Source: Planctomyces sp. SH-PL62 (GTDB taxonomy: Bacteria; Planctomycetota; Planctomycetia; Planctomycetales; Planctomycetaceae). Taken from it: a stretch of DNA of 64,000 nt. The position numbers and the translations under genes are program-made. Of this stretch, positions 286 to 63,412 are shown in pieces (within the stretch, counting starts at the first letter, position 1; each line of letters starts with the position of its first letter). Location of the stretch: the NCBI GenBank assembly GCA_945893045.1, contig CAMDEA010000002.1:62001-126000 (forward strand), read 5' to 3'. The notes under the pieces are model-generated. The model made no database searches, was not told the origin of the DNA, and saw only the letters and a list, made by a program, of their open reading frames with translations.

Positions 286-362
286 CTTCGCACACGGATG
301 CGAGGGGCGCACACGGATGAGATTCGTCAATCCGAGTGTGCCTCTCGCATCCGTGTGCGAAG
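286..362. repeat. inverted repeat element (unique type)
   Basis: The 22-nt arms 286-307 and 341-362 are complementary with one mismatch (core CGCACACGGATGCGAG) around a 33-nt loop. The element lies in the 166-nt gap between the GYF gene and the zinc-ribbon gene and is one of about forty comparable elements in the window. Confidence 0.9.
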
Positions 363-406
363 GTCGTCAGGCAAGTCGATCAGCAGCATTAGCAGGGTGT
401 TCGTGA

Positions 407-1540
407 ATGGCTGACACTTCCAAACCCGCCCAGCCTGGTGAGTCCGTCGATGACGGCAAGGGGCGCATCTTTCCGTGCGAGCAGTGCGGTGCGGACTTGG
501 AGTTCAGCATCGGGCAGCAAGACCTCAAGTGCCCGTACTGCGGGCATGAGAAGCGGATTGAACTCGCCGACGACGCGGACATCGGCGAGCAAGATTTTCA
601 CGCAATCCTCGTGAAGGTCCGCGAGTGGCGCGAGAAGTCCGATGGCCAGGAGCAATCCGGTCAGAGCGAAGTACGTTGCGTCGGCTGCGGCGGGAACGTC
701 GTCTTCGTCGGTTCGCTGACCAGCAGCGATTGCCCGTACTGCGGCTCGCCGATTCAGCTCGACAAGGTGCATGACTCGCCGAAACGGATTCCCGTGCATG
801 GCGTGTTGCCGTTTCAGATCGAGAAGGAGAAAGCTCGGCTGAACCTGACGGCGTGGGTGCAGTCGCGCTGGTTCGCTCCCAGTGAGTTCGCGCTGCGCGG
901 CGTGGAGGGGCGTTTCAACGGCGTCTATCTGCCGTTTTGGACGTACGACTCCATGACCTTCAGCCGCTATTGGGGCGAACGGGGCGACCATTACTACGTC
1001 ACGGTCACGGAGAACAATCAGACGAAGCAAGAACGCCGCACGCGCTGGTCGGCGGTCAGCGGGAGTCATCAGCGATTCTTCGACGACGTGCTGATCCTCG
1101 GAGCGAAGGGGATGCGTCGCGACATGATGGATGCACTGGAGCCGTGGCCAATCGAAAGCATTCAGCCGTTCTCGCAAGAGTTGCTGGCCGGATTCCTGGC
1201 TCGGACGTATGAGGTGGAACTCGACGAAGGCTTTCCGATCGCGAAAGAGAAGATGGACGCCGGCATTGCGTCCGACGTACGCTTCCTCATCGGCGGCGAC
1301 GAGCAGCGTGTCAGCGAGATCAAGACGCGCTACGACGCGATCACCTTTAAGCATCTGCTGTTGCCGGTGTGGCTGCTGGCGTACCGCTATCGCGATAAGT
1401 CGTATCAGATCTTTATCAACGCCGTGACGGGGGAAGTGCAGGGCGAGCGGCCTTATAGCTTCTGGAAGATTTTCCTAAGCGTGCTGTTGGCGGTGGGTAT
1501 CGTGGGGACCGTGGTGGTGGTGAGCAAACTGATGAAGTGA
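407..1540 (+). CDS. double zinc-ribbon protein with C-terminal membrane anchor
   Basis: A 377-residue protein. The N-terminus carries two four-cysteine zinc ribbons: C24, C27, C42, C45 and C91, C94, C109, C112, each ending in CPYCG. The middle region (about 125-340) is rich in aromatic residues, and a single transmembrane segment lies near 350-373 (IFLSVLLAVGIVGTVVVVS). This is the family usually labelled TFIIB-type zinc ribbon or primosomal-N'-like protein; nothing in it looks like a helicase. The upstream GYF gene suggests a membrane-associated complex. The ATG is used because the reading frame and first ribbon begin directly after it. The biochemical role is unknown. Confidence 0.85.
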   Translation: MADTSKPAQPGESVDDGKGRIFPCEQCGADLEFSIGQQDLKCPYCGHEKRIELADDADIGEQDFHAILVKVREWREKSDGQEQSGQSEVRCVGCGGNVVFVGSLTSSDCPYCGSPIQLDKVHDSPKRIPVHGVLPFQIEKEKARLNLTAWVQSRWFAPSEFALRGVEGRFNGVYLPFWTYDSMTFSRYWGERGDHYYVTVTENNQTKQERRTRWSAVSGSHQRFFDDVLILGAKGMRRDMMDALEPWPIESIQPFSQELLAGFLARTYEVELDEGFPIAKEKMDAGIASDVRFLIGGDEQRVSEIKTRYDAITFKHLLLPVWLLAYRYRDKSYQIFINAVTGEVQGERPYSFWKIFLSVLLAVGIVGTVVVVSKLMK

Positions 1541-1546
1541 TGTGAC

Positions 1547-1649
1547 GGGGTCGGGAGTCTTTTTCAGGTCGGGTCGATGGTGATTGAACGTCTGCTGGCG
1601 AGTTGTTTGTCGAAGGCTCAACGCCGACCTGAAAAAGACTCCCGACCCC
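1547..1649. repeat. REP-like inverted repeat, family R9 (GGGGTCGGGAGTC)
   Basis: Perfect 26-nt arms, 1547-1572 and 1624-1649, begin and end with GGGGTCGGGAGTCTTTTTCA and its complement, around a 51-nt loop. The same arms recur at 16390-16471 and 56015-56098. The ATG assigned to the next gene lies in the loop, and the right arm is read as coding sequence. Confidence 0.95.
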
Positions 1650-2881
1650 TTGCCCGGTGGTGGGCCGTCGCGGGACTGTCGCTGTTCGCCGCGACTTGGA
1701 AGCTGTGGACTCCGCAGACGGAGTTCCCGCAAGTGCCGTTGTTCGGCTGGGCAGGATCGCTGCCGCGGTTTGTCGATTGGCTGGCGTTCGGCGTGCTGTT
1801 GGTGTCGCTCGCAAGAGTGGTCTGGAATGCGGATTCGCGACGCGGTTGGTTGGCGTTTGTCATCGCTCTGAGCGTGTTGATCATTCTCGATCAGCACCGA
1901 CTTCAGCCGTGGGCGTGGCAACTGCTGTTGATGGCGATCTGTTGGAGTTCGGCCGACGTGGGGCAGGTTTTCAACCTGCCCGGCCGTTTCAAAGACGGGC
2001 AGTTTGAAAACCTGCCCCACGTGCTGCTGACCCTCAGCATCTATTTCTGGTCGGCCATGTCGAAGTTCGATGCGGGCTTCTATGCCTCGCACGGACAGAC
2101 ATTGGTCGAGGCTTTGTTTCAGTCCGCGAGCATCAATGCGGCAGGTTGGCCGGCAAGCGTGAAGTGGTGGTTGGCGTTCTCACTTCCTTTGGGTGAGTTG
2201 CTCGTGGCCGCCGGCCTGTGCTGGCCGCACACGCGGCGAGTGGCGCTGGTCGCGGCAACGGCGCTGCATGTTGGACTGATCCTCGCCTTGGGACCGACGG
2301 GATTGGGGCATCGGCCCGGTGTGTTGTTGTGGAATGTCGCCTTCATCGGCCACGACTGGCTTCTGTTCGGCGCACGACCGAGCGGCGCTTCCAAAATAAC
2401 CCGAAGCGTCAGCGCGGGAGTGACGTCACCGACTTTTGTCACTTCCTCGCTAACGCTTCGGGTTACTTTCATTGGCTTCGCGTGCGTGTGGCCAATCACA
2501 GCGCGGTGGGGGCTGTGCGATCATTGGCTGGCGTGGAGTGTTTATTCGACGCGGATCGAGCGCGTCAGTGTGACGCTGACCGACGAAGGTGTGCGGCGCT
2601 TGCCGGAGTCGGCTCGACGACTCGTGGTGGATAGTGAGCTGTGGCTGGATCGCTGGTCGCTCACGGCGTTGGATGTGCCGGTCTATCCACAGTTGCGGTT
2701 TCAACTCGGTGTTGTGGAAGGACTGCGACAACGCTGTGGCGCGGACAATGTTGTCGAGGTCAATGTGCGGCACTCGTTCCAGGACGGAGGCATATTCGAG
2801 CGTCTTTCGGTTGAGCAAATCGACGAACGGAGGCGTGAATTCTGGATTAACACTCAGCCGCGGTTGTTGCCGACTCCGTAG
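1577..2881 (+). CDS. multipass membrane protein, HTTM/gamma-carboxylase-like
   Basis: A 434-residue protein with several hydrophobic segments (about 28-40, 58-75, 93-125, 153-162, 190-215, 222-262, 305-325) and a soluble C-terminal tail. The stretch YFWSAMSKFDAGF resembles the conserved Y.SG..K motif of HTTM / vitamin-K-dependent gamma-carboxylase-like membrane proteins; the match is weak. Two repeat elements are read through in frame, at about residues 127-149 (family R8) and 274-297 (family R7), both between hydrophobic segments. The assigned ATG lies in the loop of the R9 element at 1547-1649, so the first 24 or so residues may be repeat-derived and the true start may be later. The TAG stop is the GTAG foot of the next element. 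Confidence 0.6.
   Translation: MVIERLLASCLSKAQRRPEKDSRPLARWWAVAGLSLFAATWKLWTPQTEFPQVPLFGWAGSLPRFVDWLAFGVLLVSLARVVWNADSRRGWLAFVIALSVLIILDQHRLQPWAWQLLLMAICWSSADVGQVFNLPGRFKDGQFENLPHVLLTLSIYFWSAMSKFDAGFYASHGQTLVEALFQSASINAAGWPASVKWWLAFSLPLGELLVAAGLCWPHTRRVALVAATALHVGLILALGPTGLGHRPGVLLWNVAFIGHDWLLFGARPSGASKITRSVSAGVTSPTFVTSSLTLRVTFIGFACVWPITARWGLCDHWLAWSVYSTRIERVSVTLTDEGVRRLPESARRLVVDSELWLDRWSLTALDVPVYPQLRFQLGVVEGLRQRCGADNVVEVNVRHSFQDGGIFERLSVEQIDERRREFWINTQPRLLPTP
1956..2022. repeat. REP-like inverted repeat, family R8 (CGTGGGGCAGGTT), inside a CDS
   Basis: Arms 1956-1982 and 1996-2022 are complementary over 27 nt with one mismatch. Each half also folds on itself (GGCAGGTT / AACCTGCC). It is translated in frame as VGQVFNLP...ENLPHV in the multipass membrane protein. 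Other copies: 8878-8974, 18851-18935, 63339-63412 and a half copy at 25603-25623. Confidence 0.95.
2397..2465. repeat. REP-like inverted repeat, family R7 (GTAACCCGAAGCGTCAGCG), inside a CDS
   Basis: Arms 2397-2424 and 2438-2465 pair with about three mismatches; the outer 18 nt (TAACCCGAAGCGTCAGCG) has one. It is translated in frame as a segment beginning KITRSVSAGV. A second, perfect copy ends tmk at 17162-17222. Confidence 0.93.
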
Positions 2882-2935
2882 ACCGGATGCCTACGTCCGG
2901 TCCGTCGGGAGTTCGGACGTAGGCGTCCGAACTAC
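2878..2935. repeat. REP-like element, family R2 (GTAG..CGGACGCCTACGTCCG), shared by two gene ends
   Basis: Outer ends are GTAG (2878) and CTAC (2935). Each half is a local hairpin: the left stem is GACCGGA/TCCGGTC, the right stem (minus strand) GTTCGGACG/CGTCCGAAC. The left GTAG supplies the TAG stop of the membrane protein (+). The M28 peptidase (-) reads through the right half and stops at a TAG in the left hairpin loop. Confidence 0.95.
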
Positions 2936-3793
2936 GTGGTGGATCGCTCGCAGACAACCGGCGGTGACTTGGCGCAGGAAGTTGATGTCGAGTGTCTCGA
3001 TGGTGTCGCTGCCGCGGTGATAGTGTGGGTTGCGCAGGAAGCTGGTGTCGGTGATCATCACGGCGGGGAAGCCGGCGTCCCAGAACGGGCTGTGGTCGCT
3101 CAGCCGAGTCGCTTGCAGAAAGTTGCCGTTCTCCGGGACTTGCAGTGTTTCGGTTGGCAGACTGGCGATCTCATTCAGGCCGTCGCGGAACAGTTCGATC
3201 AGCGCAGTCGAGTTCTGGTTGCCGATCACGGCGATGAAGTTGCCTGTCGTCGGATACTTGCCGACCAGCGGCTTCGGGAGCATCTGCGTGTGCGGCCGCT
3301 GATCGCAGTAGCCGATCATCTCCAGCGCGACCATGCCGATCAGTCGCTCTGGCCGTGAGAGCCACATGCGAGCGTGCTCGGTTCCGCCCAACATGCCTTC
3401 CTCTTCGAGATCGGTGACGACCAGTTCGACCTCCGCGCCGTGGGCCGGTCGCCAGTCCGGCCAGCAGCGGGCGATTTCCAACAGGCCGACCACTCCGCTG
3501 GCGTTGTCGTCCGCTCCGGGAGTTTCGAATCGTGAATCGAGATGCGCGGCGACACAAAGCCAGGACTTCGCGTGCGAGGATGATGGCAACGTCGCGATCA
3601 ATTGGATTCCGGTCAGCCGGTCGCCGATCCCGTTCACGGCTTCAAACTCGTGACGGCGGACATGCCAGCCAAACTGCTGAAGCTGATCGGTCACGTAGGT
3701 CCGCAGCGATTCCAATTCCGCGCTGCCGTTGGGACGCGGGCGCACGATCGCCGTCAGATGCCGTTGCAAGCGGTCGGCTTCGATGTCGGTCAT
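2891..3793 (-). CDS. M28-family zinc aminopeptidase-like protein
   Basis: A 300-residue metallopeptidase of the M28 fold. The di-zinc motifs are visible: HLDSR and GADDNASG (His/Asp ligands), EEEGMLGG (catalytic Glu plus ligand), an internal Asp in the DHSPFWD stretch, and a late His in NPHYH. No signal peptide is visible, so it is probably cytoplasmic. The start MTDIEADR is chosen because its ATG overlaps the upstream TPR gene's stop as ATGA (3790-3793), implying translational coupling; a longer in-frame reading would cover most of that gene. The last 14 or so residues (VVRTPTSELPTDRT) and the TAG stop are encoded by the R2 element, so the ancestral C-terminus was probably near AIHH. Confidence 0.88.
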   Translation of the reverse strand: MTDIEADRLQRHLTAIVRPRPNGSAELESLRTYVTDQLQQFGWHVRRHEFEAVNGIGDRLTGIQLIATLPSSSHAKSWLCVAAHLDSRFETPGADDNASGVVGLLEIARCWPDWRPAHGAEVELVVTDLEEEGMLGGTEHARMWLSRPERLIGMVALEMIGYCDQRPHTQMLPKPLVGKYPTTGNFIAVIGNQNSTALIELFRDGLNEIASLPTETLQVPENGNFLQATRLSDHSPFWDAGFPAVMITDTSFLRNPHYHRGSDTIETLDINFLRQVTAGCLRAIHHVVRTPTSELPTDRT

Positions 3794-4332: not shown

Positions 4333-4347
4333 CGAGAGATCCTCTTC

Positions 4348-4403
4348 CGTAGTTCGGACGCCTACGTCCGAACGGCTGCCCGGACGTAGGGGTCCGGGCT
4401 ACG
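4348..4403. repeat. REP-like element, family R2
   Basis: Arms 4348-4370 and 4381-4403 match 20 of 23 positions and are bounded by GTAG/CTAC. The left hairpin stem is TTCGGACG/CGTCCGAA, the right (minus strand) CCCGGAC/GTCCGGG. The right GTAG foot gives the TAG stop of the Ldh gene. With the copy at 2878 it brackets the TPR-M28 pair. Confidence 0.95.
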
Positions 4404-5482: not shown

Positions 5483-5609
5483 GGGGTCAGGTCTTCAAAT
5501 TTCATTTTTGGCCTCACGAATGAGGCGCGATGTGAATTGGAGCGGCGATGTGGAATTTGAGTCTGTGGTGGATCGGGGAGCCAAAGATGAAATTTGAAGA
5601 CCTGACCCC
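5483..5609. repeat. inverted repeat, GGGGTC family R10
   Basis: The 30-nt arms 5483-5512 and 5580-5609 have one mismatch. They begin GGGGTCAGGTCTTCAAATTT and end with its complement, around a 67-nt loop. Termini resemble 10191-10285, 14490-14549 and 62331-62424. Confidence 0.95.
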
Positions 5610-7643: not shown

Positions 7644-7697
7644 GTAGGTTAGGACTCTGTCCCGACTTCGACGGGTCGGGACAGAGTCCCAACCTAC
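7644..7697. repeat. REP-like element, family R1 (GTAGGTTGGGACTC)
   Basis: 23-nt arms 7644-7666 and 7675-7697, one mismatch, 8-nt loop, bounded by GTAG/CTAC. Each half can form a local stem (GTTGGGAC/GTCCCGAC, one wobble). Other copies: 11831-11879 and 60339-60389. It lies between the vWA gene and the DUF2238 gene. Confidence 0.95.
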
Positions 7698-7712: not shown

Positions 7713-10181
7713 TCAACTCGCATCGTCATCAGAGGTCGCATGTCCGCCGCGCACCAGTTTGCGAGTCATCAATACCTCGCCCACCAACAGCGAGAGGAAC
7801 GCCAGAAACAGGAACTGCCAGAGTTCATGACGCGGCAATTCGTTGGAAGCGGCGGCCTGAATCTCACGCCCCTCGCGAATGAATTGCAACCGCTCGTCAG
7901 CGGTGATCAACGTGATTTGCTCATTGGTCAACGGCGTGAGATTGGACTCGGCCCGATCGGCGTTGACGACGAACAACTCACGCCCCGGCGCGGCGAGCGG
8001 CTGCGCGGGTTTGTGCTTCTCGGGCGCGACCGCCTGCCCCGACAGACGCTGTTCATCAGCCGGCTCTTTGCGTCGCAACGAGTAAACGCCCGGCAACGAC
8101 GTGTCATCGAGGATCAACAACTGCGACGCTCCCTCGCCTCTGAGTTTCGCTGCGCGCGGCTCACCGTCCGGTCCTTCAAAGACGAAGCCCGTTGGAGTTC
8201 CGTCGTCCGCCGGCTTCACAGAGGACGGGAGCGTTCCAATCAACGGTTGCCCCACCGCGACGTTTCGTTCGCCGCGACGCGACGCGAGCTGAAACAACCA
8301 CTCATGCACGAACGCGACGAAATCCGGCTTGGCGAGCAGCGTGCTCCAATCGGCATCCAATGGCGAGGTCAGCAACATCACGTTCCCGCGACCGTACTGG
8401 CCACCAATCAGATAGGGCGCTCCGGTCTGTAGCCTCGCGAGTACGACCGCCGGCTGGCGTTCGGGATTGTCCGTCTCTGACTCGTCGTCCGGCTGGAGTT
8501 CCTCCACCTCTTTCGGCGGTTTATCTTCCGCCATCTTCACTTTCCACCAGCGACTGAATCGCGCCGTCGTAAACGCCGCGCCGCGTTCGGCGCGGAAACG
8601 TTGCAGCCACGGCGATTCGAGCGTTGCGTTGGCGATGAACACTCCTTGCTCGCGATGCTCAGCCGGTTCGGATTCGATCTCGACCAGCGACACGCCCAGC
8701 AAGCCGGCCTCATCCGCGAAGAGCTGGCTGTTGTAACGATCCTTCTCGACCCGATTGCCCAGCGCGAGTCCGACTCCACCACCGCGCTTCGCGTAATCAG
8801 CCAGCGCGGCGAATTGAACGTCGGAAAGTTGCGGCACATTCGCCAGCAAGACCGCCGCATACTTATCGAGATCATTCACGTGGGGCAGGTTTTCAACCTG
8901 CCCGGACTGATTCGCGTTCGGTTTCGGGTTTGTTGGTTTGGGATCGGCGGGCAGGTTGAAAACCTGCCCCACGTTCCATTCGGACCATTTCACGACGGTC
9001 GGCTTGACCCACGGCGTGTCATTGCCGCTCGCGGCCAGCGCGGCACGCACGAAGAACGTTTCGCTCTGCACTGGATCGGGACGCGGATCGCCATCCACCA
9101 GCAACACCGGCAGCGCTTTGGTAACGACAATCACCGCTTCGCTGGTGTTGTCAGTCGGCAAGTCATCGGCATCCAATGCGACTCGGACGAGATGCGCGCC
9201 CGTGCTTTCGAAGCGATGCTCGAACTCGACGTTCGCTTCGCCGCCCGGCGCGAGCGTGACGGAAACCGTGCGCTCGGCGAGCCGCTGCCCATCGACCTCG
9301 AAATGCACTTGCCGAGTTACGCTGGTCGAACCGCCGCTGAAGTGGACTCGCGATTGAACCCGCACCGGAAAGCCGGGCACCGACAACTCGCGCGATGGCT
9401 GCAATCGCGCGACGTGAAAGTTCAATCGTTCGCCCGAAGGGGGCAATTCCTGGTCATCGCCAGCACCGGCGGCGAGCACGTTGACGACCCACAAATGCGG
9501 AGTGACCGACGACTGCTTTCGCAGATCGTCCAGCCGCAGCCAGAGATTCGAATCCTCGGCGAACCAACCCTGCGCCTGCCCATCGGTCAGCAGGATGACC
9601 TCGCGCCGCAAATGATTCGTGCGGCTGAGCAGCTTGACCGCGTGAGCCAACGCCTCCGGAAAATTCGCCGTTCCGGTCGGCGGCGGTAGTCGCTTAAGCA
9701 CATCGCGCACGCGGTTCAGATCCCGTGTCGGCGGGTCGATCAACGTGCGAACTTGCTCGCGAGCTTCCAGCAGCGTGACCGTGTCACCCGGCCGAAGCTG
9801 ACTCAAGAACTTGTCGATCCACCGCACGGACAACTCTTGCGGCGTGACCGAAGTCGCCTCCCACGCCGTGCTGTACGAGCCGTCGAGAATGATGACCACA
9901 TCCCGATTCGGTTGCGGCCCGATATCGCCCAACCACCTCGCGCTGACCCACGGCCGAGCCATCGCGATCGCCAACCACACAATCAATGCCATGCGCAACA
10001 GCAGCAGCCACAAGTCTTCCAGCCACACACGCCGCCGAGTCTCCTGGCCCAGCTTCAGAAACTGCATCGCGCCCCAAGAGACGATGTCGTACTTCTTCTT
10101 GCTGAGCAGATGCGCGATCACCGGCAAGGCAACTCCCGCCAAGCCTGCCAGCATCCAGGGATTGAGCAGTTCAAAAGACAT
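7713..10181 (-). CDS. BatA/vWA-domain membrane protein
   Basis: An 822-residue protein. The N-terminus is a BatA-type region with two transmembrane helices (LLNPWMLAGLAGVALPVIAHLL and LWLLLLRMALIVWLAIAM). A von Willebrand A domain follows (about 95-245) with the metal-site motif D-G-S-Y-S and a later TDGQAQG. The middle has beta-rich and glutamine-amidotransferase-like regions, and a C-terminal transmembrane segment lies near 795-815. Such proteins usually accompany MoxR ATPases in planctomycetes; none is next to it. An R8 repeat (8878-8974) is translated in frame at about residues 403-435. The start MSFELLNP fits the family; no ribosome-binding site is visible, and a GGGGTC-type element begins 10 nt upstream. 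Confidence 0.82.
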   Translation of the reverse strand: MSFELLNPWMLAGLAGVALPVIAHLLSKKKYDIVSWGAMQFLKLGQETRRRVWLEDLWLLLLRMALIVWLAIAMARPWVSARWLGDIGPQPNRDVVIILDGSYSTAWEATSVTPQELSVRWIDKFLSQLRPGDTVTLLEAREQVRTLIDPPTRDLNRVRDVLKRLPPPTGTANFPEALAHAVKLLSRTNHLRREVILLTDGQAQGWFAEDSNLWLRLDDLRKQSSVTPHLWVVNVLAAGAGDDQELPPSGERLNFHVARLQPSRELSVPGFPVRVQSRVHFSGGSTSVTRQVHFEVDGQRLAERTVSVTLAPGGEANVEFEHRFESTGAHLVRVALDADDLPTDNTSEAVIVVTKALPVLLVDGDPRPDPVQSETFFVRAALAASGNDTPWVKPTVVKWSEWNVGQVFNLPADPKPTNPKPNANQSGQVENLPHVNDLDKYAAVLLANVPQLSDVQFAALADYAKRGGGVGLALGNRVEKDRYNSQLFADEAGLLGVSLVEIESEPAEHREQGVFIANATLESPWLQRFRAERGAAFTTARFSRWWKVKMAEDKPPKEVEELQPDDESETDNPERQPAVVLARLQTGAPYLIGGQYGRGNVMLLTSPLDADWSTLLAKPDFVAFVHEWLFQLASRRGERNVAVGQPLIGTLPSSVKPADDGTPTGFVFEGPDGEPRAAKLRGEGASQLLILDDTSLPGVYSLRRKEPADEQRLSGQAVAPEKHKPAQPLAAPGRELFVVNADRAESNLTPLTNEQITLITADERLQFIREGREIQAAASNELPRHELWQFLFLAFLSLLVGEVLMTRKLVRGGHATSDDDAS
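8878..8974. repeat. REP-like inverted repeat, family R8, inside the vWA gene
   Basis: Perfect 27-nt arms, 8878-8904 and 8948-8974 (ACGTGGGGCAGGTTTTCAAC and so on), with a 43-nt loop. Read in frame on the minus strand as VGQVFNLP ... GQVENLPHV, the same peptide seen in the membrane protein at 1577. Confidence 0.96.
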
Positions 10182-10190
10182 AGCGAATGC

Positions 10191-10285
10191 GGGGTCGGGT
10201 GTGCGAATTTCAGACTTCGCCGGAGGAATCTTGGGAAGTGGAGGAGACGGTGACGGCGAAATCTGAAATTCGCACCCCCGACCCC
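10191..10285. repeat. inverted repeat, GGGGTC family R10 variant
   Basis: 32-nt arms 10191-10222 and 10254-10285, two mismatches, starting GGGGTCGGGTGTGCGAATTT. It fills the gap between the propeller gene and the vWA gene on the minus strand. Confidence 0.95.
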
Positions 10286-10297: not shown

Positions 10298-11380
10298 TTA
10301 CGGAGACTCGTGCAGCCAGACTTCCGAGTGCATCGTGTAAAGCCGAGTCCGCTCGCCATCGCGGATCAGGATGCCACTCGAACGATTGAGTTCGCGCGGC
10401 AGTATCGGATTGCCGTCGTACTTCTTCCACGAACGAAGATCGTCGGAGACGGCGATGCAGGTGCTCCACAACGACGGCGTCTCGCCCTTGGCCGAGCCGT
10501 GGTAGTACGTGTAGTAACGCCCTTTGTGCTTCACGATCTGATTCATCGCGATCAAGTCGCGGTCGTGAAGACCTTGGCCCGGACGCAGCACCGGTTCGTC
10601 GCTGACGTTGGTCCAGACTTTGAGGTCGGGCGACGTCGCCAACCAGACGCCGGCATCGCTGCGCTCGTAGAACAAATGCCAAACACCTTCCAGCCACGCG
10701 GTCGGAGTGCCATACGGTCCCGGCTCAATCGGCTGGCCGTTGACCTTTCGAACATCGAGTTGTCCCGCTCGCTGCCACTTCACGCCGTCCCGGCTGGTCA
10801 GCAATTGAGCTTGATCGTCTTTGCCTTCGGCGAACATGTGCCAGATCAAAAGCTGGCTTCCCGGCTGCTGCGAACCGCCGGGGAGCGAACGAGACGCTCG
10901 CCCTCCGGCCGGCACAACCATGACGTCTTCGACCCAGTGTTGATCGGAGATGGGATTGTCCTTGTGCCGCGTCCAAGCGATACCGTCAGGCGATGTCGCC
11001 AAACCCAGCCGCTTGATCCCTTCGCGAGTCCCGTCGTAGCCGGTGTACCACATCCGATACCTTGGCTTTGCATTGGCTTCATTCGCCGTCGGATCGAGAT
11101 GAATCCAACCCCGCTCGCGAATCTTGACCTCCCACGTGCCCGGCCCCGCAGCCGTGAAGACCGGCTTGTCGCCGTGCTGCTTGAACTTCACCAACTCCGT
11201 CGGAAAGTCCTCGGCCAGAGTGGCTGACGGACACCCAATCCACAACGCGACGAGAACACAGGCCAAATACCTCTGTGCTCGATCCGCGAAATCCGTGTCG
11301 TCCGTGTTCTTCCTGGCCGCACAATTGGAACACGGATGACACGGATTTCGCGGATGAAAAACGGAGCTGGATCGCATCAT
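10298..11380 (-). CDS. secreted five-bladed-propeller glycosidase-like protein
   Basis: A 360-residue protein whose repeated Trp/Asp-rich blades (RYRMWYTGYDG, LATSPDGIAW, VWHLFYERSDAG, LATSPDLKVWT, YYTYYHGS) are typical of the GH43/GH130/GH32 beta-propeller fold. The catalytic acids cannot be assigned with confidence. The start is fixed by an ATGA overlap with the stop of the TIM-barrel gene (11377-11380). The signal peptide is unusual: a short MMRSSSVF, then about 25 residues encoded by a repeat hairpin (11282-11355), then the hydrophobic core YLACVLVALWIG with a probable cleavage after TLA. The gene is translationally coupled to the upstream isomerase-like gene, suggesting carbohydrate catabolism. 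Confidence 0.75.
   Translation of the reverse strand: MMRSSSVFHPRNPCHPCSNCAARKNTDDTDFADRAQRYLACVLVALWIGCPSATLAEDFPTELVKFKQHGDKPVFTAAGPGTWEVKIRERGWIHLDPTANEANAKPRYRMWYTGYDGTREGIKRLGLATSPDGIAWTRHKDNPISDQHWVEDVMVVPAGGRASRSLPGGSQQPGSQLLIWHMFAEGKDDQAQLLTSRDGVKWQRAGQLDVRKVNGQPIEPGPYGTPTAWLEGVWHLFYERSDAGVWLATSPDLKVWTNVSDEPVLRPGQGLHDRDLIAMNQIVKHKGRYYTYYHGSAKGETPSLWSTCIAVSDDLRSWKKYDGNPILPRELNRSSGILIRDGERTRLYTMHSEVWLHESP
11282..11355. repeat. inverted repeat, family R12 (ATCCGCGAAATCCGTGT), inside a signal peptide
   Basis: 28-nt arms 11282-11309 and 11328-11355, one mismatch, 18-nt loop. Encodes residues 9-33 (with NTDDTDFAD) of the propeller protein, between its first residues and the hydrophobic core. 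Confidence 0.95.
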
Positions 11381-12240
11381 AGCCTCGACAAGAAATCAAA
11401 CGATTCGCGCAGCACATCGGGAGCCATGTGGCTGTGCCGGCTGAGTTCCACATTCACGCAGCCGGTGTATCCGATCTTGCGGAGAGCGGCCATTACCGGC
11501 GGGAAGTCGATTTCTCCCTCGCCGAAACGCAGATGCTCGTGAACGCCGCGCCGCATATCTTCGATGTGAATGTTGCAGAGACGCCCCGCCCACTGCCGCA
11601 GATGATCGGCGATCGAACCGGTCTCGACGCATTGCACATGGCCGATGTCGATGGTCAGTCCGAAGCGCGGTGAACCAACTTGCTTGGCGAGTTGCCCGTA
11701 TTGCTCCAGCGTCTCGACCAACATGCCCGGCTCCGGCTCGAAGGCGAGCTGCATGTTTTTCCGTTCGGCGTTGTCGGTGACTTGCCGACAGCCATCAAGC
11801 AGCCATTGCCACGCGATGTTGTTGGTGTCCGTAGGTTGGGACTCCGTCCCGACCGGGTCGGGACAGAGTCCCAACCTACTCACGCCCGACCAAAACGAGA
11901 CCGCGTCGGAATTCAGTTCCTTCGCGATTTCGATGCAGCGACAGAGAAAATCGACGCGGCGCGAACGGCCCTCGGCCGTTGGCGAGATCAACGTCGGCTC
12001 GTGCTTCTGACGCGGGTCCAGCAAGAACCGCGCGCCGGTCTCGATCACCGAGCGCAGCCGCAGCCGTTCGAGCGTGCGGCGCATCTCATCAAGTTCGCTT
12101 GCAAAGTTCGGCGCGAACGGGTTGAGGCAATGCTGATCGACGGTGATCGCGACTGATTGGTAGCCGACCTCCGCCAGCAGTTCGAGGCCGTCTTGCCAGC
12201 GATGAAATGCCAAGCCATTGGTGTTGTAACCGAGCAGCAT
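11377..12240 (-). CDS. sugar phosphate isomerase/epimerase-like TIM barrel
   Basis: A 287-residue xylose-isomerase/AP-endonuclease-2 type TIM barrel. Characteristic strands and metal ligands are visible: GYNTNGLAFH at the N-terminus, AFEPEPGM (Glu ligand), LTIDIGHVQC (Asp and His), NIHIEDM (His) and VNVELSRH near the C-terminus (Glu). An R1 repeat (11831-11879) is translated in frame at about residues 121-137 as SRLGLCPDPVGTESQPTD, directly after the strand DAVSFWSG, in a loop at the catalytic end of the barrel. Its stop overlaps the start of the propeller gene. The substrate is probably a sugar or cyclitol (inference). Confidence 0.83.
   Translation of the reverse strand: MLLGYNTNGLAFHRWQDGLELLAEVGYQSVAITVDQHCLNPFAPNFASELDEMRRTLERLRLRSVIETGARFLLDPRQKHEPTLISPTAEGRSRRVDFLCRCIEIAKELNSDAVSFWSGVSRLGLCPDPVGTESQPTDTNNIAWQWLLDGCRQVTDNAERKNMQLAFEPEPGMLVETLEQYGQLAKQVGSPRFGLTIDIGHVQCVETGSIADHLRQWAGRLCNIHIEDMRRGVHEHLRFGEGEIDFPPVMAALRKIGYTGCVNVELSRHSHMAPDVLRESFDFLSRL
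11831..11879. repeat. REP-like element, family R1, inside the TIM-barrel gene
   Basis: 23-nt arms 11831-11853 and 11857-11879, one mismatch, 3-nt loop, bounded by GTAG/CTAC. Translated in frame on the minus strand (RLGLCPDP...). The GTAG is out of phase here, so it does not stop translation. Confidence 0.96.
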
Positions 12241-12274
12241 GACGAGGCCGCGACAAAAAACGGTATAACGGCTG

Positions 12275-12324
12275 TCGGCTCTCGGCCATCGGCGTTCGGC
12301 CGGAAGCCGATGGCCGAAAGCCGA
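12275..12324. repeat. inverted repeat, family R11 (TCGGCYTTCGGCCATCGGC)
   Basis: 19-nt arms 12275-12293 and 12306-12324, one mismatch. It lies between the DUF1080 gene and the TIM-barrel gene. Related copies: 22331-22397, a variant at 31553-31616, and a fragment near 51000-51040. Confidence 0.92.
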
Positions 12325-12348
12325 TCGCCGGTATCACAACTCCGCCGG

Positions 12349-51724: not shown

Positions 51725-51759
51725 GCCGTGACGGCTGAGTTTGTCGTTGCCCGGATGCG

Positions 51760-51833
51760 GTTCATTCGCGCTCCACTTAATTCGCGCGGCAGTTCTTTAA
51801 GAGCCGCGCGAATTAAGTGGAGCGCGAATGAAC
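51760..51833. repeat. inverted repeat (GTTCATTCGCGCTCCACTTA)
   Basis: Perfect 31-nt arms 51760-51790 and 51803-51833, 12-nt loop. Lies between the convergent yacG and HisA-like genes; the latter reads into the right arm for its last codons and TAA stop. Confidence 0.97.
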
Positions 51834-52556
51834 GGCAGGCAACTCTGCGAAACTGATCGCCCCGTTGTGCAACGCAGTGGCGAGGAGCACGCCGTCGATT
51901 CCGGCGGCTTGCAGGGGTCGCAGGTCATCGGCGTTTCGCACGCCGCCGCCGGTGATGAGGCGGGTGTCCGGCGCGAACCGCCGGATGGATTCACACAGCG
52001 CGATCGTGCTCGGCCCGCGTTGTTCGCCGACGCTGGTGAGATCCAGCACGATCAGTTGCGTGAGGCCCAAGCTCACAACGTGTTGAGCAATCCCCAGCGG
52101 CGAAGTCTCCGGCCAATCCGAATGGCCCAGCATCGGACGTCCCGCTTGAAGGTCGAGACTGAAGACGATGCGTGAGGCACCGATTTTCGCCACCAATGCC
52201 GCGAGCAATCGCGCGTCGGGAACCGTTTCCAAACCGACGATGACCCTCGCCGCCCCTGCGTTCAACAGGCGATTCGCGTCGTTGAGCGAACGGACTCCCG
52301 CGTCGATCCAGAACTCGAAGCCGTCATCGGCGAGCTGGCGATAAATCTCATCGTTGGGCTGCTGCCGCAGGATGCCATCCAGATCGGCAACGTACAAAGT
52401 CGTCAAACTCAACCGCTCGCGAAATGCCCGCGCGACGTCCAAGGGTTGCGCTGAGGACGTCAGTACGCTTTCTACTGGACGGTATTCGTTACGACGTCCG
52501 CCAACGCCTCGCACAACCACACCATTGAGCAAATCCAGAACAGGGATGACGAGCAT
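51813..52556 (-). CDS. HisA/HisF-related TIM-barrel protein
   Basis: A 247-residue TIM barrel related to HisA: VIPVLDLLNGVVVRGVGG (with the N-terminal catalytic-type Asp), LYVADLDGI, WIDAGVRSLND, VFSLDLQAGRP and LITGGGVRNADDLRPLQAAGIDGVLLATALHNG. The first motif has VVVRG in place of the HisA G.CVRL, closer to the archaeal HisA/F-related family than to true HisA. Last residues VHSRST and the TAA stop are encoded by the repeat at 51760. It may serve pterin/C1-cofactor biosynthesis rather than histidine synthesis (inference). Confidence 0.75.
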   Translation of the reverse strand: MLVIPVLDLLNGVVVRGVGGRRNEYRPVESVLTSSAQPLDVARAFRERLSLTTLYVADLDGILRQQPNDEIYRQLADDGFEFWIDAGVRSLNDANRLLNAGAARVIVGLETVPDARLLAALVAKIGASRIVFSLDLQAGRPMLGHSDWPETSPLGIAQHVVSLGLTQLIVLDLTSVGEQRGPSTIALCESIRRFAPDTRLITGGGVRNADDLRPLQAAGIDGVLLATALHNGAISFAELPAVHSRST

Positions 52557-54332: not shown

Positions 54333-54695
54333 GCGGCGGAGTGTATCGGCAGCAAGGGATGAGAGTCAGGAGTCACGAGCATCGTGATGCCGCGATCCGA
54401 GCCTCATCACTTTCGATCCCAATGCAAATGCCCAAACCCACGAACCAATTGACGCGCAGGCGAACGGGGCGGCGTGAGCCCCCCGGTATTCAATGGCCAT
54501 CGTGCTCACCGGGAGGCTCACGCCGCCCCGCTCGCCAAACTGGTCACCGACATGCCTCCAACATCAACTGCTTGATTCTCGTGGGACATCTCACCAAAGT
54601 TCGGACACAGTTCGAGAAGTTCACACTTTCAGCGGCACATCGCAGCCGTACTCAACTCCGACTTTCCTTGGAATTCTTGTTGGTTGGTGAATCTT
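54333..54695. other. divergent promoter region with one repeat
   Basis: 363 nt between the histidine kinase (-) and homoserine dehydrogenase (+). Holds the 54459-54536 element; otherwise no feature I can name. Confidence 0.5.
54459..54536. repeat. inverted repeat (GGCGARCGGGGCGGCGTGAG)
   Basis: 28-nt arms 54459-54486 and 54509-54536, two mismatches, 22-nt loop. Confidence 0.94.
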
Positions 54696-56014: not shown

Positions 56015-56098
56015 CGGGGGCGGGAGTCTTTTTCAGGCCGCGTCTCCCGCCTTCAAATGAACAATCCAATCACCGCGGCCTGAAAAAGACTCCCGACC
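56015..56098. repeat. REP-like inverted repeat, family R9
   Basis: Arms 56015-56040 and 56072-56098 match perfectly except for one missing T on the left (GGGGCGGGAGTCTTTTTCAG). Loop 31 nt, unique. Lies between hom and the PSP1 gene. Confidence 0.95.
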
Positions 56099-56111
56099 CC
56101 TTGGGCACCAC

Positions 56112-56974: not shown

Positions 56975-57039
56975 GTAGCCCCGCTTCGCCAGAACGCGGG
57001 CGTGCGACCGCAAACCCACGTTCTGGCGAACGTGGCTAC
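56975..57039. repeat. REP-like element, family R4 (GTAGCC...TTCGCCAGAACG)
   Basis: Arms 56975-57000 and 57015-57039 pair with two changes and one indel, bounded by GTAG/CTAC; local stems are CGC...GCG-like around TTCGCCAGAA. The right foot gives the TAG stop of the D-aminoacylase gene. Confidence 0.92.
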
Positions 57040-58731: not shown

Positions 58732-58813
58732 GTAGGTCAGGCTTTCTAGCCTGACCCGAACGCTCTCGACAACGCCGATGTCAAAACCGGTCAGCCTGGA
58801 AAGGCTGACCTAC
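58732..58813. repeat. REP-like element, family R5 (GTAGGTCAGGCT)
   Basis: Two hairpins: left GGTCAGGCT-TTCT-AGCCTGACC, right GGTCAGCCT-GGAA-AGGCTGACC; ends GTAG (58732) and CTAC (58813). The paired G-to-C and C-to-G differences keep each local stem perfect. The right foot gives the TAG stop of the MATE gene. Confidence 0.95.
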
Positions 58814-60240: not shown

Positions 60241-60338
60241 CGGCGGGCGCTCGCGGACAAATCGGTGGAGGCGTCGGATTTGAGGACGTGAGCCGCGCGG
60301 ACGCAAGGCAGGCGTTGATCTGTGATCGGCATCGGCTC

Positions 60339-60389
60339 GTAGGTTGGGACTCCGTCCCGAACCCTGGTCGGGACGGAGTCCCAACCGAC
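60339..60389. repeat. REP-like element, family R1
   Basis: 22-nt arms 60339-60360 and 60368-60389 (GTAGGTTGGGACTCCGTCCC), one mismatch that changes the right foot to GTCG. Between the divergent MATE and prenyltransferase-like genes. Confidence 0.94.
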
Positions 60390-60440: not shown

Positions 60441-61400
60441 ATGGCAAACGATCAACGAGCAATGACGAACGAACCTTACCTCATCTCTCTCGGTACTCGC
60501 GTCGCCACGGGTCTCGCGCGGCTGGAGCCAGAGCGGCGCGAGCGGCATCGGCGATTCATTCTTTCGCGACAACTGCGCGACGGTGGGTTCAAAGGGCGTG
60601 AGGGGGACTCCGATCTCTATTACACCGGCTTCGCCGTGCGCGGCTTAGCGGTGCTCGGTGGACTCTCGCCGGAAGAGGCTCAGCAAATCGGCCGGTTTGT
60701 CGGCAGTTTCGATTGGCGCTCGCTGCATGTGGTGGATCTCATTAGTTGGCTGTACTCGGCGCTGGTCACGCAGACGTTTGGCGGTCCTGATCCGTTCGCC
60801 AATGAACCGACCGACTGGCCGGATCAGATTGCCGCCAAGCTCGAAAGCGTGCGGACTCCCGACGGCGGTTACGCGAAGTCGGCCGAAGGATCGCTCGGCA
60901 GCACGTATCACTCGTTCCTGACGGTGATGACTTACGAGTTGCTGGGCCGTCAGCCACCCAAGCCGAAGAAGCTGGGACAGTTTTTGTTCGACCGGCAGCG
61001 CGATGATGGCGGCTTCGTCGAGATTGGTCCGATGAAAACCAGCGGCACGAACCCAACCGTTGCGGCCGCCGTGCTGTTACGCCGATTGGGCTTTGCCGAC
61101 GAACAGCTCACGGCCGACCTGCGCGATTTCATGAAGCTGGTTCGCAGCGACGAAGGGGGCTTTCAGGCCAACACACGCATCCCGTTCGCGGACGGACTCT
61201 CGACGTTTACGACGCTGCTCGTCGCTCAAGACTTTGGTCTGACCGAATCGTTGGATGTGGCGGCCATCACTGCGTTCATCACGCAACAACTCGAATTCCC
61301 CACGGGCGGCTTTCGCGGTGCGAGTTGGGACGAACAAGCGGACGTCGAATACACGTTCTACGGACTCGGCGTGCTCGGCTTGCTGAGTGCGGAAAAGTAG
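60441..61400 (+). CDS. prenyltransferase/squalene-cyclase-repeat protein (likely non-catalytic)
   Basis: A 319-residue alpha-alpha toroid similar to the beta subunit of eukaryotic Rab geranylgeranyl transferase: repeated GGF/GGY motifs (RDGGFKGR, PDGGYAKS, DDGGFVEI, DEGGFQAN, PTGGFRGA). The zinc site of true prenyltransferases (Asp-x-Cys and His) appears altered: the segment corresponding to PDVCYSWW reads ADGLSTFT, and DPFHTLFG reads DVEYTFYG, so Cys is Leu and His is Tyr. Probably a binding or pseudo-enzyme. ATG 60441; MTNEPY seven codons later is possible. TAG stop from the R6 element. Confidence 0.78.
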   Translation: MANDQRAMTNEPYLISLGTRVATGLARLEPERRERHRRFILSRQLRDGGFKGREGDSDLYYTGFAVRGLAVLGGLSPEEAQQIGRFVGSFDWRSLHVVDLISWLYSALVTQTFGGPDPFANEPTDWPDQIAAKLESVRTPDGGYAKSAEGSLGSTYHSFLTVMTYELLGRQPPKPKKLGQFLFDRQRDDGGFVEIGPMKTSGTNPTVAAAVLLRRLGFADEQLTADLRDFMKLVRSDEGGFQANTRIPFADGLSTFTTLLVAQDFGLTESLDVAAITAFITQQLEFPTGGFRGASWDEQADVEYTFYGLGVLGLLSAEK

Positions 61401-61450
61401 ACTAGTCACTCCGTGACTCGAATTCTCCGGTCACGGAGTGACCGGTCTAC
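61397..61450. repeat. REP-like element, family R6 (GTAGACYRGTCACTCCGTGAC)
   Basis: 21-nt arms 61397-61417 and 61430-61450, two mismatches; ends GTAG/CTAC; local stems GTCAC/GTGAC. The left foot is the TAG stop of the prenyltransferase-like gene. Confidence 0.95.
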
Positions 61451-61454
61451 TTTG

Positions 61455-61961
61455 CTACCCGCCGTCGATCGAGTTGGTGATGGCGTTCGACGGGCTGGGG
61501 GGCAGGTTGAGGACGTCTTCGGGGAAGAGATCCACGAGGAAGTCCACGATGTCCCGCACCGAGAGCACTCCCACCGGTCGGCCCCCTTGAATGATGGGAA
61601 TGTGGCGATAGCCGCCGACGCTCATCTTGTTGAGCGCGAACGCAATGCTGTCGTCCGCTTCGAGCGTTTCCGGATTCTTGGTCATCACGGATTCGACCGC
61701 CACCGTGTGGCTATCCGCGCGGAAGAAGTCCTTGGTCAGCACGTCACGCTCGGTAAAGATGCCGATCAGCTTGCCTTCGCGGCCCACCAACACGCAACCG
61801 GTGTGATGGTCGTTCATGGATTTCACCGCGTCGGCCACAGTCGATGTGGCACTGACCAAAATCGGATCTCGCAGTGGGAGCTCACTGATTGGGGTTTCCA
61901 GGATCGCTCCACGAATGCGTTGTTGATCATCGTAGGCGTCGTCAAATTCGCTCATGTTCAT
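61455..61961 (-). CDS. two-CBS-domain protein
   Basis: A 168-residue protein with two CBS domains: about 30-85 (LPLRDPILVSATSTVADAVKSMNDHHTGCVLV ... GIFTERDVL) and about 95-150 (VMTKNPETLEADDSIAFALNKMSVGGYRHIPII ... GVLSVRDIV). CBS pairs bind adenosine nucleotides and regulate partners. It lacks any fused domain. Convergent with the prenyltransferase-like gene. Confidence 0.92.
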   Translation of the reverse strand: MNMSEFDDAYDDQQRIRGAILETPISELPLRDPILVSATSTVADAVKSMNDHHTGCVLVGREGKLIGIFTERDVLTKDFFRADSHTVAVESVMTKNPETLEADDSIAFALNKMSVGGYRHIPIIQGGRPVGVLSVRDIVDFLVDLFPEDVLNLPPSPSNAITNSIDGG

Positions 61962-62282
61962 GGCGGACCTCCGCGTGATATAGATGGGACGCGAACGGCT
62001 GTTGCGCGTCGTTGACTGCCGCCCGTCCGATCGCGCATCGGTGATGGGCGTTTCTGCGGAGGCACGGTGCCAACGCGGTTGCAGCTTGTCAAGCCGTGCG
62101 TTGGGAATTACCGCCGCCGATCACAGTCGCCCGGTGCGTTCGCAGGACACATTGCCCCACTTGGGCCGGACTACTAGAAACCCGCCCCCTTCCCCTCCGA
62201 GAACGTCTTGCGTTCCGCAGAAATCCCCTCTTCGCGTGCTCACCATTTCGCGGTCTTCAAATCTTTTGGCGTGGAGTCCCAC
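61962..62282. other. 321-nt gap without recognisable features
   Basis: Divergent region between the CBS gene and the lipoprotein gene. I see no repeat pair, RNA gene or motif I can support. Confidence 0.5.
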
Positions 62283-63335
62283 ATGCCCAAGTCATCGGCG
62301 TTTGAGCCTCGTGGTCGTGTCAAAACCAAAGGGTCGTGCGTTCAAAATTCAAAATTGGCGGACACAGTGTTAGGGCAACTCAAAGCGCGACTTCCGCCAA
62401 TTTTGAATTTTGAACGCACGACCCCGCTCCTGTTGCTCGCTCTGTTTGGATTGAGCGGCTGCGCGACGTTGCCGTATGGCTATGGATCGGCTCAGCGGTA
62501 TCGCACGTCGCCGGAGTTGGAAGCTCGCACCAGTCAGCAGATCGAGCGCGGCCAGCCGCACAAGGTTTTGGATTCCGTTGGTTGGGTCTGGAGCATTCCC
62601 GACAAGATCATTCTTTGGGATCGGCGGATCGGGAATCACCACATCGGTACGCAGACCGAGTCGGCGATCGCGGACTATCTCGCGAAGAATGAGCTGACGT
62701 CGGTCAAGGTGCGGCTCAACCAGTATCACCCCGGCGATGACTGGCGGCGGCTGGGAGCGAACGATTCCGTGGGAGCCGGCTGGCGCTACACGCTCGGCAC
62801 GCTGAGCGTCTTGGGAGAGACGATCTTCCCCGGCCGAGTCTTCGGCGGCGATCACTTCAATCCCTTCACCAACACGGTCCACGTTTATTCCGACGTCCCG
62901 GCCGTCGCGGTCCATGAGGCCGGCCACTCGAAAGACTTCGCGCAGCGCGAATGGAAAGGAACTTACGCGGCGGCTTACCTGATTCCCGGAGTTCCGCTGT
63001 ATCACGAGGCCAAGGCGACCAACGATGCGCTCGGTTATCTGCTGACTGAGTCGGACGAGCGAACTCAACGGGATGCCTACGAGATTCTGTATCCGGCGTA
63101 CGGCACGTATGTCGGCGGCGCGTTCGGCGGAGTCTTTGGCGGCTACGGCACCTACTTCGCGAGCGTCTTAGGCGGGCATGCTTTCGGGCGGATCAAGTCC
63201 GAGCAAATCGCCAACGGCACGTTGCCCGAATCGCAGCACGTTCAGTCACGTTCGGTGTCTGACATCAAGACGACGTCCTCGACCGTCGAGGTTGACGGAC
63301 AAACCATCGAACGGATTGGCGTGGAGTTTCCGTGA
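62283..63335 (+). CDS. lipoprotein with repeat-expanded signal peptide
   Basis: A 350-residue lipoprotein. The lipobox is LLLLALFGLSGC with the lipidated Cys at residue 60. Residues 17-47 (from GSCVQNSKL to NFERTT) are encoded by a perfect hairpin (62331-62424), so the n-region is about 48 residues instead of the usual 5-20; without it the signal would read MPKSSAFEPRGRVKTK then LLLLALFGLSGC. The mature protein has a HEAGH motif (AVAVHEAGHSKDFAQ), typical of zinc metalloproteases, and glycine-rich segments (GGAFGGVFGGYGTYFASVLGG) that could span a membrane. Function unknown. Confidence 0.75.
   Translation: MPKSSAFEPRGRVKTKGSCVQNSKLADTVLGQLKARLPPILNFERTTPLLLLALFGLSGCATLPYGYGSAQRYRTSPELEARTSQQIERGQPHKVLDSVGWVWSIPDKIILWDRRIGNHHIGTQTESAIADYLAKNELTSVKVRLNQYHPGDDWRRLGANDSVGAGWRYTLGTLSVLGETIFPGRVFGGDHFNPFTNTVHVYSDVPAVAVHEAGHSKDFAQREWKGTYAAAYLIPGVPLYHEAKATNDALGYLLTESDERTQRDAYEILYPAYGTYVGGAFGGVFGGYGTYFASVLGGHAFGRIKSEQIANGTLPESQHVQSRSVSDIKTTSSTVEVDGQTIERIGVEFP
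62331..62424. repeat. inverted repeat, GGGGTC family R10 variant, in a signal peptide
   Basis: Perfect 32-nt arms 62331-62362 and 62393-62424 (GGGTCGTGCGTTCAAAATTC...), 30-nt loop. Translated in frame in the lipoprotein signal n-region. Confidence 0.96.
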
Positions 63336-63338
63336 ACG

Positions 63339-63412
63339 ACGTTGGGCGGGTTTTCAACCTGCCAGGGATCAACTCGGCGTTCAGCCGGGCAGGTTGAAAA
63401 CCTGCTCCACGT
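63339..63412. repeat. REP-like inverted repeat, family R8 (diverged)
   Basis: Arms 63339-63365 and 63386-63412 pair with four mismatches (ACGTTGGGCGGGTTTTCAAC with the R8 consensus on the right). It lies between the lipoprotein gene and pyrB. Confidence 0.9.

What the first reader, a model, noticed from the sequence alone, without database searches (positions are those of the whole stretch)
286..63412. Dense, multi-family REP/BIME-like hairpin system without a visible mobilising enzyme
About forty inverted-repeat elements (45-130 bp) of at least a dozen families occur in 64 kb, often as recurrent copies (R1 three, R2 three, R3 three, R8 four plus a half, R9 three, R7 two, R13 two). Many consist of two local hairpins in opposite orientation. 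Families R1-R6 begin with GTAG at both outer ends. Known REP elements have a GTAG/GGAG tetranucleotide next to an imperfect palindrome, occur as inverted pairs (BIMEs) and are mobilised by RAYT transposases of the IS200/IS605 type. The sequence architecture is seen directly; relation to REP/RAYT is inference. What seems unusual is the number of families coexisting and their entry into coding sequence.
Basis: partly seen in the sequence, partly recalled or inferred. Interest (0 to 1): 0.88.

Follow-up and report, generated by a model that had tools for sequence, protein, structure and literature searches.

The report
Dozens of coexisting REP/RAYT palindrome families
This planctomycete-like genome carries dozens of families of small hairpin-forming repeats, about half of them paired with a dedicated transposase gene outside the window, and some copies have slipped in frame into ordinary protein genes; the kind of element is known, but the number of families side by side is unusually high.

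Summary
Forty stretches of the window match arms of palindrome families (30 with both arms); simulations give none. In 1.66 Mb of the genome (21%) there are 504 elements, in 39 families of three or more copies. The enzyme is only out of view: the genome has at least 13 Y1/RAYT-type genes, one 6.4 kb left of the window. Of 103 RAYT loci fetched from the genus, 35 are bracketed by arms of one family, against 22 of 3000 random own-genome positions; 19 of 39 families have such a partner, 11 of them only in a congener. Whole doublets are present or absent at orthologous sites, and three arms counted reach 140-338 copies. So at least half are REPIN- and TIR-type elements. Eighty-four of 504 lie inside predicted genes; at four comparable window sites the frame is kept apart from one congener, and three carry another palindrome family in a congener. 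Such behaviour is in print for other bacteria. Least explained are families with direct-repeat arms: no RAYT partner (0 of 8), rarely in genes (1 of 58, post hoc).

The parts
286..362 (.). palindromic doublet, direct-repeat-arm family F39
1547..1649 (.). TIR-type doublet F6/c5 (GGGGTCGGGAGTCTTTTTCAGG arms); RAYT partner in congener G004
1956..2022 (.). doublet F2/c3, inside predicted gene 1577-2881; RAYT partners in congeners G007, G001
2393..2469 (.). doublet F0/c2, inside predicted gene 1577-2881; RAYT partner in congener G007
2877..2936 (.). GTAG-type doublet F38
4347..4402 (.). GTAG-type doublet F38
5483..5609 (.). TIR-type doublet F4/c1; copies 87-91% identical flank the RAYT of contig C155 (L009) on both sides
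7644..7697 (.). GTAG doublet F16/c8; absent at the site in congener G002
8878..8974 (.). doublet F2/c3 inside gene 7713-10181; same element in G002, an unrelated palindrome at the same site in G008
10191..10285 (.). TIR-type doublet F10; other families in the same gap of G002 and G008
11282..11355 (.). palindrome F49 (single copy in the sample), shared with G002, absent from G008
11829..11879 (.). GTAG doublet F16/c8 inside TIM-barrel gene 11377-12240; family c31 at the same site in G002
12265..12334 (.). palindrome F52 (single copy in the sample)
13124..13223 (.). direct-repeat-arm doublet F30; c0-type element in the same gap of G004 and G008
14497..14549 (.). palindrome F51/F27; lacking in G004 (which keeps nine bases of the right end) and G008; c19 in G002
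16390..16472 (.). TIR-type doublet F6/c5; shared with G002, absent at the site in G004 and G008
17160..17225 (.). doublet F0/c2 over the end of predicted gene 16481-17209; present in G008, absent from G002
18850..18936 (.). doublet F2/c3 inside U32/TrhP-like gene 17996-20518; c3 in G004 and G007, c0-type in G008, G006, G009, G011; frame kept in 10 of 10 genomes
21456..21520 (.). doublet F3; the RAYT of this family lies 6.4 kb left of the window (C2:55291-55572, L010)
22313..22415 (.). palindrome F50 (single copy in the sample)
22813..22872 (.). GTAG doublet F38 inside ATP-grasp gene 22438-23628; net length 60 or 63 in G004, G007, G008, G003 and 30 in G011, G005
25377..25453 (.). GTAG doublet F19/c20; RAYT of contig C11 (L011) bracketed by this family
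25605..25627 (-). single arm of F2/c3
28181..28262 (.). direct-repeat-arm doublet F29
29354..29429 (.). direct-repeat-arm doublet F29; with 28181-28262 brackets gene 28367-29350
29468..29545 (.). GTAG doublet F19/c20
30655..30732 (.). GTAG doublet F19/c20
31546..31623 (.). direct-repeat-arm palindrome F23
32656..32746 (.). direct-repeat-arm doublet F13
44658..44720 (.). direct-repeat-arm doublet F20 (put in this class by eye)
51756..51837 (.). direct-repeat-arm doublet F15
54459..54538 (.). doublet F1; RAYT partner in congeners G008, G004
56016..56100 (.). TIR-type doublet F6/c5
56975..57039 (.). GTAG doublet F12; RAYT partner in congener G002
58732..58813 (.). GTAG doublet F5/c4; RAYT of contig C27 (L007) bracketed by this family
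60338..60389 (.). GTAG doublet F16/c8 inside predicted gene 60210-61400
61394..61453 (.). GTAG doublet F8
62331..62424 (.). TIR-type doublet F4
63339..63412 (.). doublet F2/c3

Best explanation
Most of the elements are non-autonomous REP doublets (REPINs/BIMEs) and TIR-type relatives, spread by single-strand-acting HUH/Y1 transposases of the RAYT/TnpA-REP kind encoded elsewhere in the genome. Each such family has had its own RAYT, flanked by that family's arms. The RAYT recognises the hairpin ends and moves the whole doublet (two inverted arms plus a variable spacer); surviving copies lie mostly in gaps close behind stop codons. Many lineages of RAYT and doublet have come and gone in this genus, so a genome holds families whose RAYT is present, lost, or seen only in a sister species. 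Insertions also land in genes and survive where the reading frame stays open and the protein tolerates a loop of some 10-47 residues. Shown: association with RAYTs, copy number, presence or absence as a unit, conserved frame. Inferred: the enzymatic step, the direction of each gain or loss, and that RAYT absence means loss.
For: 35 of 103 RAYT-type loci of the genus (36 less one self-match, L006) have arms of one family on both sides within 600 bp, against 22 of 3000 random own-genome positions. The 19 families with a partner hold 298 of the 504 elements (copy numbers). The best-scoring NCBIfam model for five of six partner proteins is 'REP-associated tyrosine transposase'. Arm counts: c3 266 in G000 and 11-407 in the genus; c2 338; c5 140 in G000, 112 in G002, 307 in G004, 0-14 in the other nine congeners and 0 outside the genus; reversed-pattern control 0 everywhere; + and - counts nearly equal where numbers are high. 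At five sites congeners lack arms and spacer together. Spacers between copies are about as alike as shuffled ones in 16 of 18 families assessed. By one definition 67 of 284 elements lie in predicted genes where random 80-bp stretches do so 82% of the time; in the larger sample 84 of 504 lie strictly inside and 352 are intergenic.
Against: 20 of 39 families have no RAYT partner found. The random control is from the own genome, whereas 90 of the 103 loci are in congeners. All six partner proteins score below the curated cut-off (two just pass it), and one is nearer to IS200. Ten of the 80 extra stretches were chosen because they hold Y1 genes, so the reverse scan (7 of 26 intervals bounded by one family's arms hold RAYT-like sequence, one weakly) is largely not independent; only the F26 gene was new there. 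Arm number does not simply follow RAYT presence: c2 has 338 arms in G000 without a partner found and 184 in G007 with one. 24 RAYT loci share no repeat across their two sides and 4 had too little flank. At 14497 congener G004 keeps nine bases of the right end, so some absences may be losses. No excision product or activity was tested. The genome is a draft (89% complete), so 'RAYT absent' is weak. Direct-repeat-arm families do not fit the scheme.
Confidence: 0.85

Rival explanations
1. The palindromes are vertically inherited regulatory hairpins (terminators, mRNA stabilisers) that merely look alike.
For: Most lie in gaps, close behind stop codons (median 3 nt for GTAG families, 10-21 nt for the other classes); many arms fold strongly.
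Against: Present/absent polymorphism between congeners and unrelated families at one site; hundreds of near-identical arms; 84 of 504 in genes; no Rfam match at gathering scores in the window.
Confidence: 0.05
2. They are MITEs of ordinary DDE insertion sequences.
For: Short inverted-repeat doublets with variable interior; families without self-folding arms exist.
Against: The bracketing transposases found are Y1 RAYTs. DDE transposases were not searched for with profiles here, so this is weaker for the 20 families without partner.
Confidence: 0.05
3. The direct-repeat-arm families are a separate class with another origin: another mobiliser, or local template-switch and slippage events that make perfect hairpins.
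For: 0 of 8 families with a RAYT partner against 19 of 31 others (Fisher p 0.003); 1 of 58 copies in genes against 83 of 446 (p 0.0003) (classes defined after seeing the data). Arms consist of a short word repeated in tandem. Among the repeats shared across RAYT loci I saw none of this type (by inspection).
Against: They show the same doublet form, and two tested families are mainly or wholly genus-restricted, as c5 is; a RAYT subgroup outside the fetched loci may serve them.
Confidence: 0.35

Closest known systems
GTAG-tagged REPs and REPtrons (Di Nocera et al. 2013, PMC3733652; passages and sections 5 and 16 read)
   Same: Terminal GTAG next to a hairpin, head-to-head dimers, RAYT genes flanked by the repeats, several families in one genome (the paper names Rhodopirellula baltica and Opitutus terrae among others), copies inside ORFs.
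   Different: Here 11 GTAG families and 28 others of three or more copies in a 21% sample of one genome.
TIR-type repeats and TIRYTs (same paper)
   Same: Long inverted repeats, some sharing a GGGGWSAS motif, around Y1 transposases; families F4, F6, F10, F27 have GGGGTC(A/G)G-like ends, of which GGGGTCAG fits the motif and GGGGTCGG differs at one position.
   Different: Several sub-lineages coexist (9 among 39 elements of four clusters); the paper finds TIR families in a limited number of genomes.
REPINs (Bertels and Rainey 2011, PMC3116915; 2021, PMC8049555; passages read)
   Same: Inverted REP doublets with a highly diverse spacer, the doublet being the replicating unit; genomes with REPINs but no RAYT.
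   Different: The 2011 paper describes groups GI-GIII in strain SBW25; here dozens of families.
REP classes and RAYT loss in Pseudomonas and Stenotrophomonas (Nunvar et al. 2013, PMC3686654; passages read)
   Same: Abundant REPs without cognate RAYT, the RAYT being present in related strains.
   Different: That paper reports at most four RAYTs in a genome and 22 classes over 63 pseudomonads; here at least 13 Y1/RAYT-type genes in one genome.
Rickettsia palindromic elements (as cited in PMC3733652; no paper on them read)
   Same: Palindromes in frame within protein genes, here with recurrent peptides.
   Different: Here the intragenic families also have many intergenic copies and several have RAYT partners.

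Membership tests
REP/REPIN with RAYT | short palindromic unit in many copies | tested here: met
   39 families of 3 or more copies in 1.66 Mb; 140-338 arms genome-wide for the three counted
REP/REPIN with RAYT | GT(A/G)G tetranucleotide beside the hairpin | tested here: inconclusive
   GTAG met in 11 of 39 families, not in the other 28; GTGG/GGAG variants not counted
REP/REPIN with RAYT | each arm folds into its own hairpin | tested here: inconclusive
   23 of 39 families at least 3 kcal/mol below shuffles
REP/REPIN with RAYT | inverted doublet with diverse spacer, gained or lost as one unit | tested here: met
   five sites; spacers of 16 of 18 assessed families near shuffled level, F14 and F19 alike, five families with too few long spacers
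REP/REPIN with RAYT | cognate RAYT flanked by the same repeats | tested here: met
   19 of 39 families, 35 of 103 loci, control 22 of 3000
REP/REPIN with RAYT | RAYT cuts its REP as single-stranded DNA | not testable with these tools
   needs biochemistry
TIR-type repeat of TIRYTs | GGGGWSAS-like end and Y1 transposase between the repeats | tested here: met
   F4, F6, F10 bracket Y1 genes in G000, G004, and G002/G004; F27 has the end but no partner found
REP/REPIN (direct-repeat-arm families) | cognate RAYT flanked by the same repeats | tested here: not met
   0 of 8 families, so these are not filed as REPINs
Rickettsia palindromic element-like behaviour | in-frame insertion in conserved genes | tested here: met
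   frame kept in 10 of 10 genomes at 18850, 7 of 7 at 22813 and 3 of 3 at 11829; 2 of 3 at 8878, G008 being disrupted

The most novel reading that the evidence does not exclude
A second class of genomic palindrome coexists with the REP/RAYT system: doublets whose arms are tandem direct repeats of one short word (F13, F15, F17, F20, F23, F24, F29, F30 and rarer ones). They have no RAYT, avoid coding sequence, sit close behind stop codons, and spread by an unidentified enzyme or by replication-linked copying. Separately, REP-class palindromes act as exchangeable in-frame loop cassettes, a protein linker carrying unrelated families in different species.
Probability: 0.3. Interest if true: 0.65.

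Novelty: new member of a known kind. Interest (0 to 1): 0.47.

Why it matters
A genus in which 19 repeat families of one genome find a RAYT partner, with congeners where that RAYT is present or not found, would let one test how RAYT specificity evolves, how long doublets outlive their enzyme, and how often mobile palindromes become protein loops. The direct-repeat-arm families would, if truly without RAYT, be a mobile palindrome class without a known mover.

Tried and rejected
Chance: rejected by simulations. A window-specific cluster: rejected, since other stretches are similar. Doublets arising from two separate insertions around host DNA: not favoured, since sites without the element lack the spacer too. 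Arms of one element copied from each other: the strong arm-to-arm identity of F4 and F10 comes from lumping several sub-lineages (9 among 39 elements), so no special copying mechanism is claimed. Arm number following RAYT presence: not supported in general. A RAYT beside c3 among 80 of the 98 named c3 loci: the only hits, in 4 loci, came from one query (L143) read in a doubtful frame; partners of this family were found later in G007 and G001. An open-frame explanation of which families enter genes: only partial, since several open-frame families have no intragenic copy; frame bias among open frames is modest (F1 11 of 15, F2 10 of 14).

Limits: family counts depend on threshold (36-39 families of 3 or more at three thresholds). 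Ten of the 80 extra stretches were chosen for their Y1 genes, so density, neighbour enrichment (17 against 7.3 within 2 kb) and the reverse RAYT scan are biased upward; confidence in the best explanation was set at 0.85 with that in mind. For own loci the flanking arms are themselves among the copies counted (F26 has two others). Genes are my own hexamer predictions. The direct-repeat class was defined after seeing the data; F20 was put in by eye and F27 moved to the TIR class. RAYT hits at contig edges, unlisted, or in other genera were not all used: 103 genus loci were examined. Only families found in G000 were used, so congener-specific repeats are missed. Four intragenic window sites had congener sequence; 1956, 2393 and 60338 had none.
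Full report
Observation. The window is G000:C2:62001-126000 of a 7.83-Mb, 251-contig draft genome. A planctomycete genus is therefore inferred. The window has 27 inverted repeats of score 18 or more and none in 20 simulations. With family arms from the whole sample it has 40 matching stretches, 30 with both arms. A sample of 1,662,655 bases (window plus 80 stretches, ten of them chosen for their Y1 genes) holds 504 elements, about 2,400 per genome by extrapolation, in 49 clusters of two or more copies and 39 of three or more; at two other thresholds 36 and 39.

Architecture. Of the 39 families, 11 carry GTAG near the outer end and 23 have arms that fold on their own. Four have GGGGTC-like ends and resemble the TIR repeats of Di Nocera et al. 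By a direct-repeat criterion 11 clusters of two or more copies, 8 of three or more, have arms made of a repeated word; F20 was added by eye and F27 counted with the TIR type. Spacers between copies are about as alike as shuffled ones in 16 of 18 families assessed, with small excesses in many; F14 and F19 are alike. A highly diverse spacer is published for REPINs (PMC8049555, passage). Outside genes, GTAG elements sit a median of 3 nt from stop codons.

The enzyme. PF01797 finds 11 Y1 transposase genes in the genome and NF047646 two more. blastn shows arms of window elements 5483-5609, of the 25377/29468/30655 family and of 58732-58813 flanking the transposase genes of contigs C155, C11 and C27. 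Element 21456-21520 belongs to the family flanking the gene 6.4 kb left of the window. Over 103 RAYT-type loci fetched from the genus (13 own), 36 have one family's arms on both sides within 600 bp, 35 without the self-match L006, against 22 of 3000 random own-genome positions. Nineteen of the 39 families thus have a partner, and these hold 298 of the 504 elements. For F0, F1, F2, F6, F10, F11, F12, F16, F18, F32 and F36 the partner was found only in a congener. In reverse, 26 intervals bounded by one family's arms held RAYT-like sequence in 7 cases, one weak; this is mostly not independent, because five of the stretches had been chosen for their RAYTs, but the F26 gene was new. The partner proteins match the REP-associated tyrosine transposase model mostly just below or well below its cut-off.

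Mobility. Counting single arms in 40 genomes (up to one mismatch): c3 266 in G000 and 11-407 in the genus, elsewhere 0 except 19, 3 and 1; c2 338 in G000, 29-212 in other congeners, 9-92 in five other genera of the family; c5 140, 112 and 307 in G000, G002 and G004, 0-14 in the other congeners, none outside. Reversed-pattern controls are 0 everywhere. Congeners lack elements 7644, 11282, 14497, 16390 or 17162, arms and spacer together, in at least one species, while some of the others share them. At 14497 G004 keeps the last nine bases of the right end, and at 17160 the alignment in G002 is not clean, so gain and loss were not told apart.

Coding sequence. Of the 504 elements, 84 lie at least 60 nt inside predicted genes, 68 touch a gene otherwise and 352 are intergenic. 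Families differ: F2 14 of 33, F1 15 of 35, F16 5 of 10, F0 2 of 40. Intragenic copies encode recurrent peptides, for example VGQVFNLP...GQVENLPH in several c3 copies. At 18850 in a U32/TrhP-like gene ten genomes, G000 included, keep the frame; c3 stands in G000, G004, G007 and c0-type sequence in G008, G006, G009, G011; G005, G003 and G001 show no family known from G000. In the TIM-barrel gene 11377-12240, c8 in G000 is c31 in G002. In the gene at 8878, G008 carries an unrelated palindrome with a net +11 nt, so its frame is disrupted there (an assembly error cannot be excluded). At 22813 the net length is 60 or 63, or 30. Permissive linkers that tolerate repeated insertion are the simplest reading.

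What is left over. The direct-repeat-arm families have no RAYT partner (0 of 8 against 19 of 31), and 1 of 58 copies lies in a gene against 83 of 446 (post hoc). Of 99 RAYT loci with enough flank, 75 share some repeat across their sides; by inspection I saw none of this type. F20/F24 has 42 matches in G000 and 2 outside the genus, F15 69 and none outside. Twelve other families of three or more copies also lack a partner.

Known or new. Several REP families in one genome, including a planctomycete, intragenic REPs, TIR repeats, diverse spacers and RAYT loss are all in print (PMC3733652, PMC3116915, PMC8049555, PMC3686654; passages or sections read). The TnpA-Y1 survey PMC6006769 reports a class found mainly in Planctomycetes, Acidobacteria and Proteobacteria with atypical flanking structures (passages). 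In the passages read I saw no description of direct-repeat-arm doublets or of different families at one orthologous coding site; the literature searches were made, in one open library only, and supplements were not read. Hence: a new and extreme member of a known kind, with one unexplained sub-class.

Noticed in passing
L051:606-1532 (RAYT of contig C155): The RAYT of family F4 has a C-terminal stretch weakly matching the DnaA helix-turn-helix domain (PF08299, E 1.1e-5, below its cut-off).
   Followed up: no
L011 / L030:11214-11519: The Y1 gene bracketed by family F19 has an in-frame TAG and an open frame of only about 101-111 aa, so this RAYT is probably decayed.
   Followed up: no
window 28181-29429, 29468-30732; L020:8666-10216: Single host genes bracketed by doublets of one family on both sides without a transposase between; same-family neighbours are enriched.
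   Followed up: partly
L193, L198, L241 and others: Public MAG records titled 'Candidatus Kuenenia stuttgartiensis' carry this repeat and match contig lengths and numbers of congener G007; the species name looks doubtful (that Kuenenia is a distant anammox genus is recalled).
   Followed up: no
G008, L095 about 14080-14787: The ortholog of window gene 7713-10181 carries a different palindrome at the site of 8878-8974 with net +11 nt, and its open frame is only 460 aa.
   Followed up: partly
L203, L204, L208: The exact 24-mer of c3 also occurs in Phycisphaerales and a Verrucomicrobiales MAG, although 25 of 28 tested genomes outside the genus lack the c3 arm.
   Followed up: no
window 24765-24793 and 50999-51029: Single arms similar to families F34 and F23, without a partner arm; possibly chance or remnants.
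   Followed up: no
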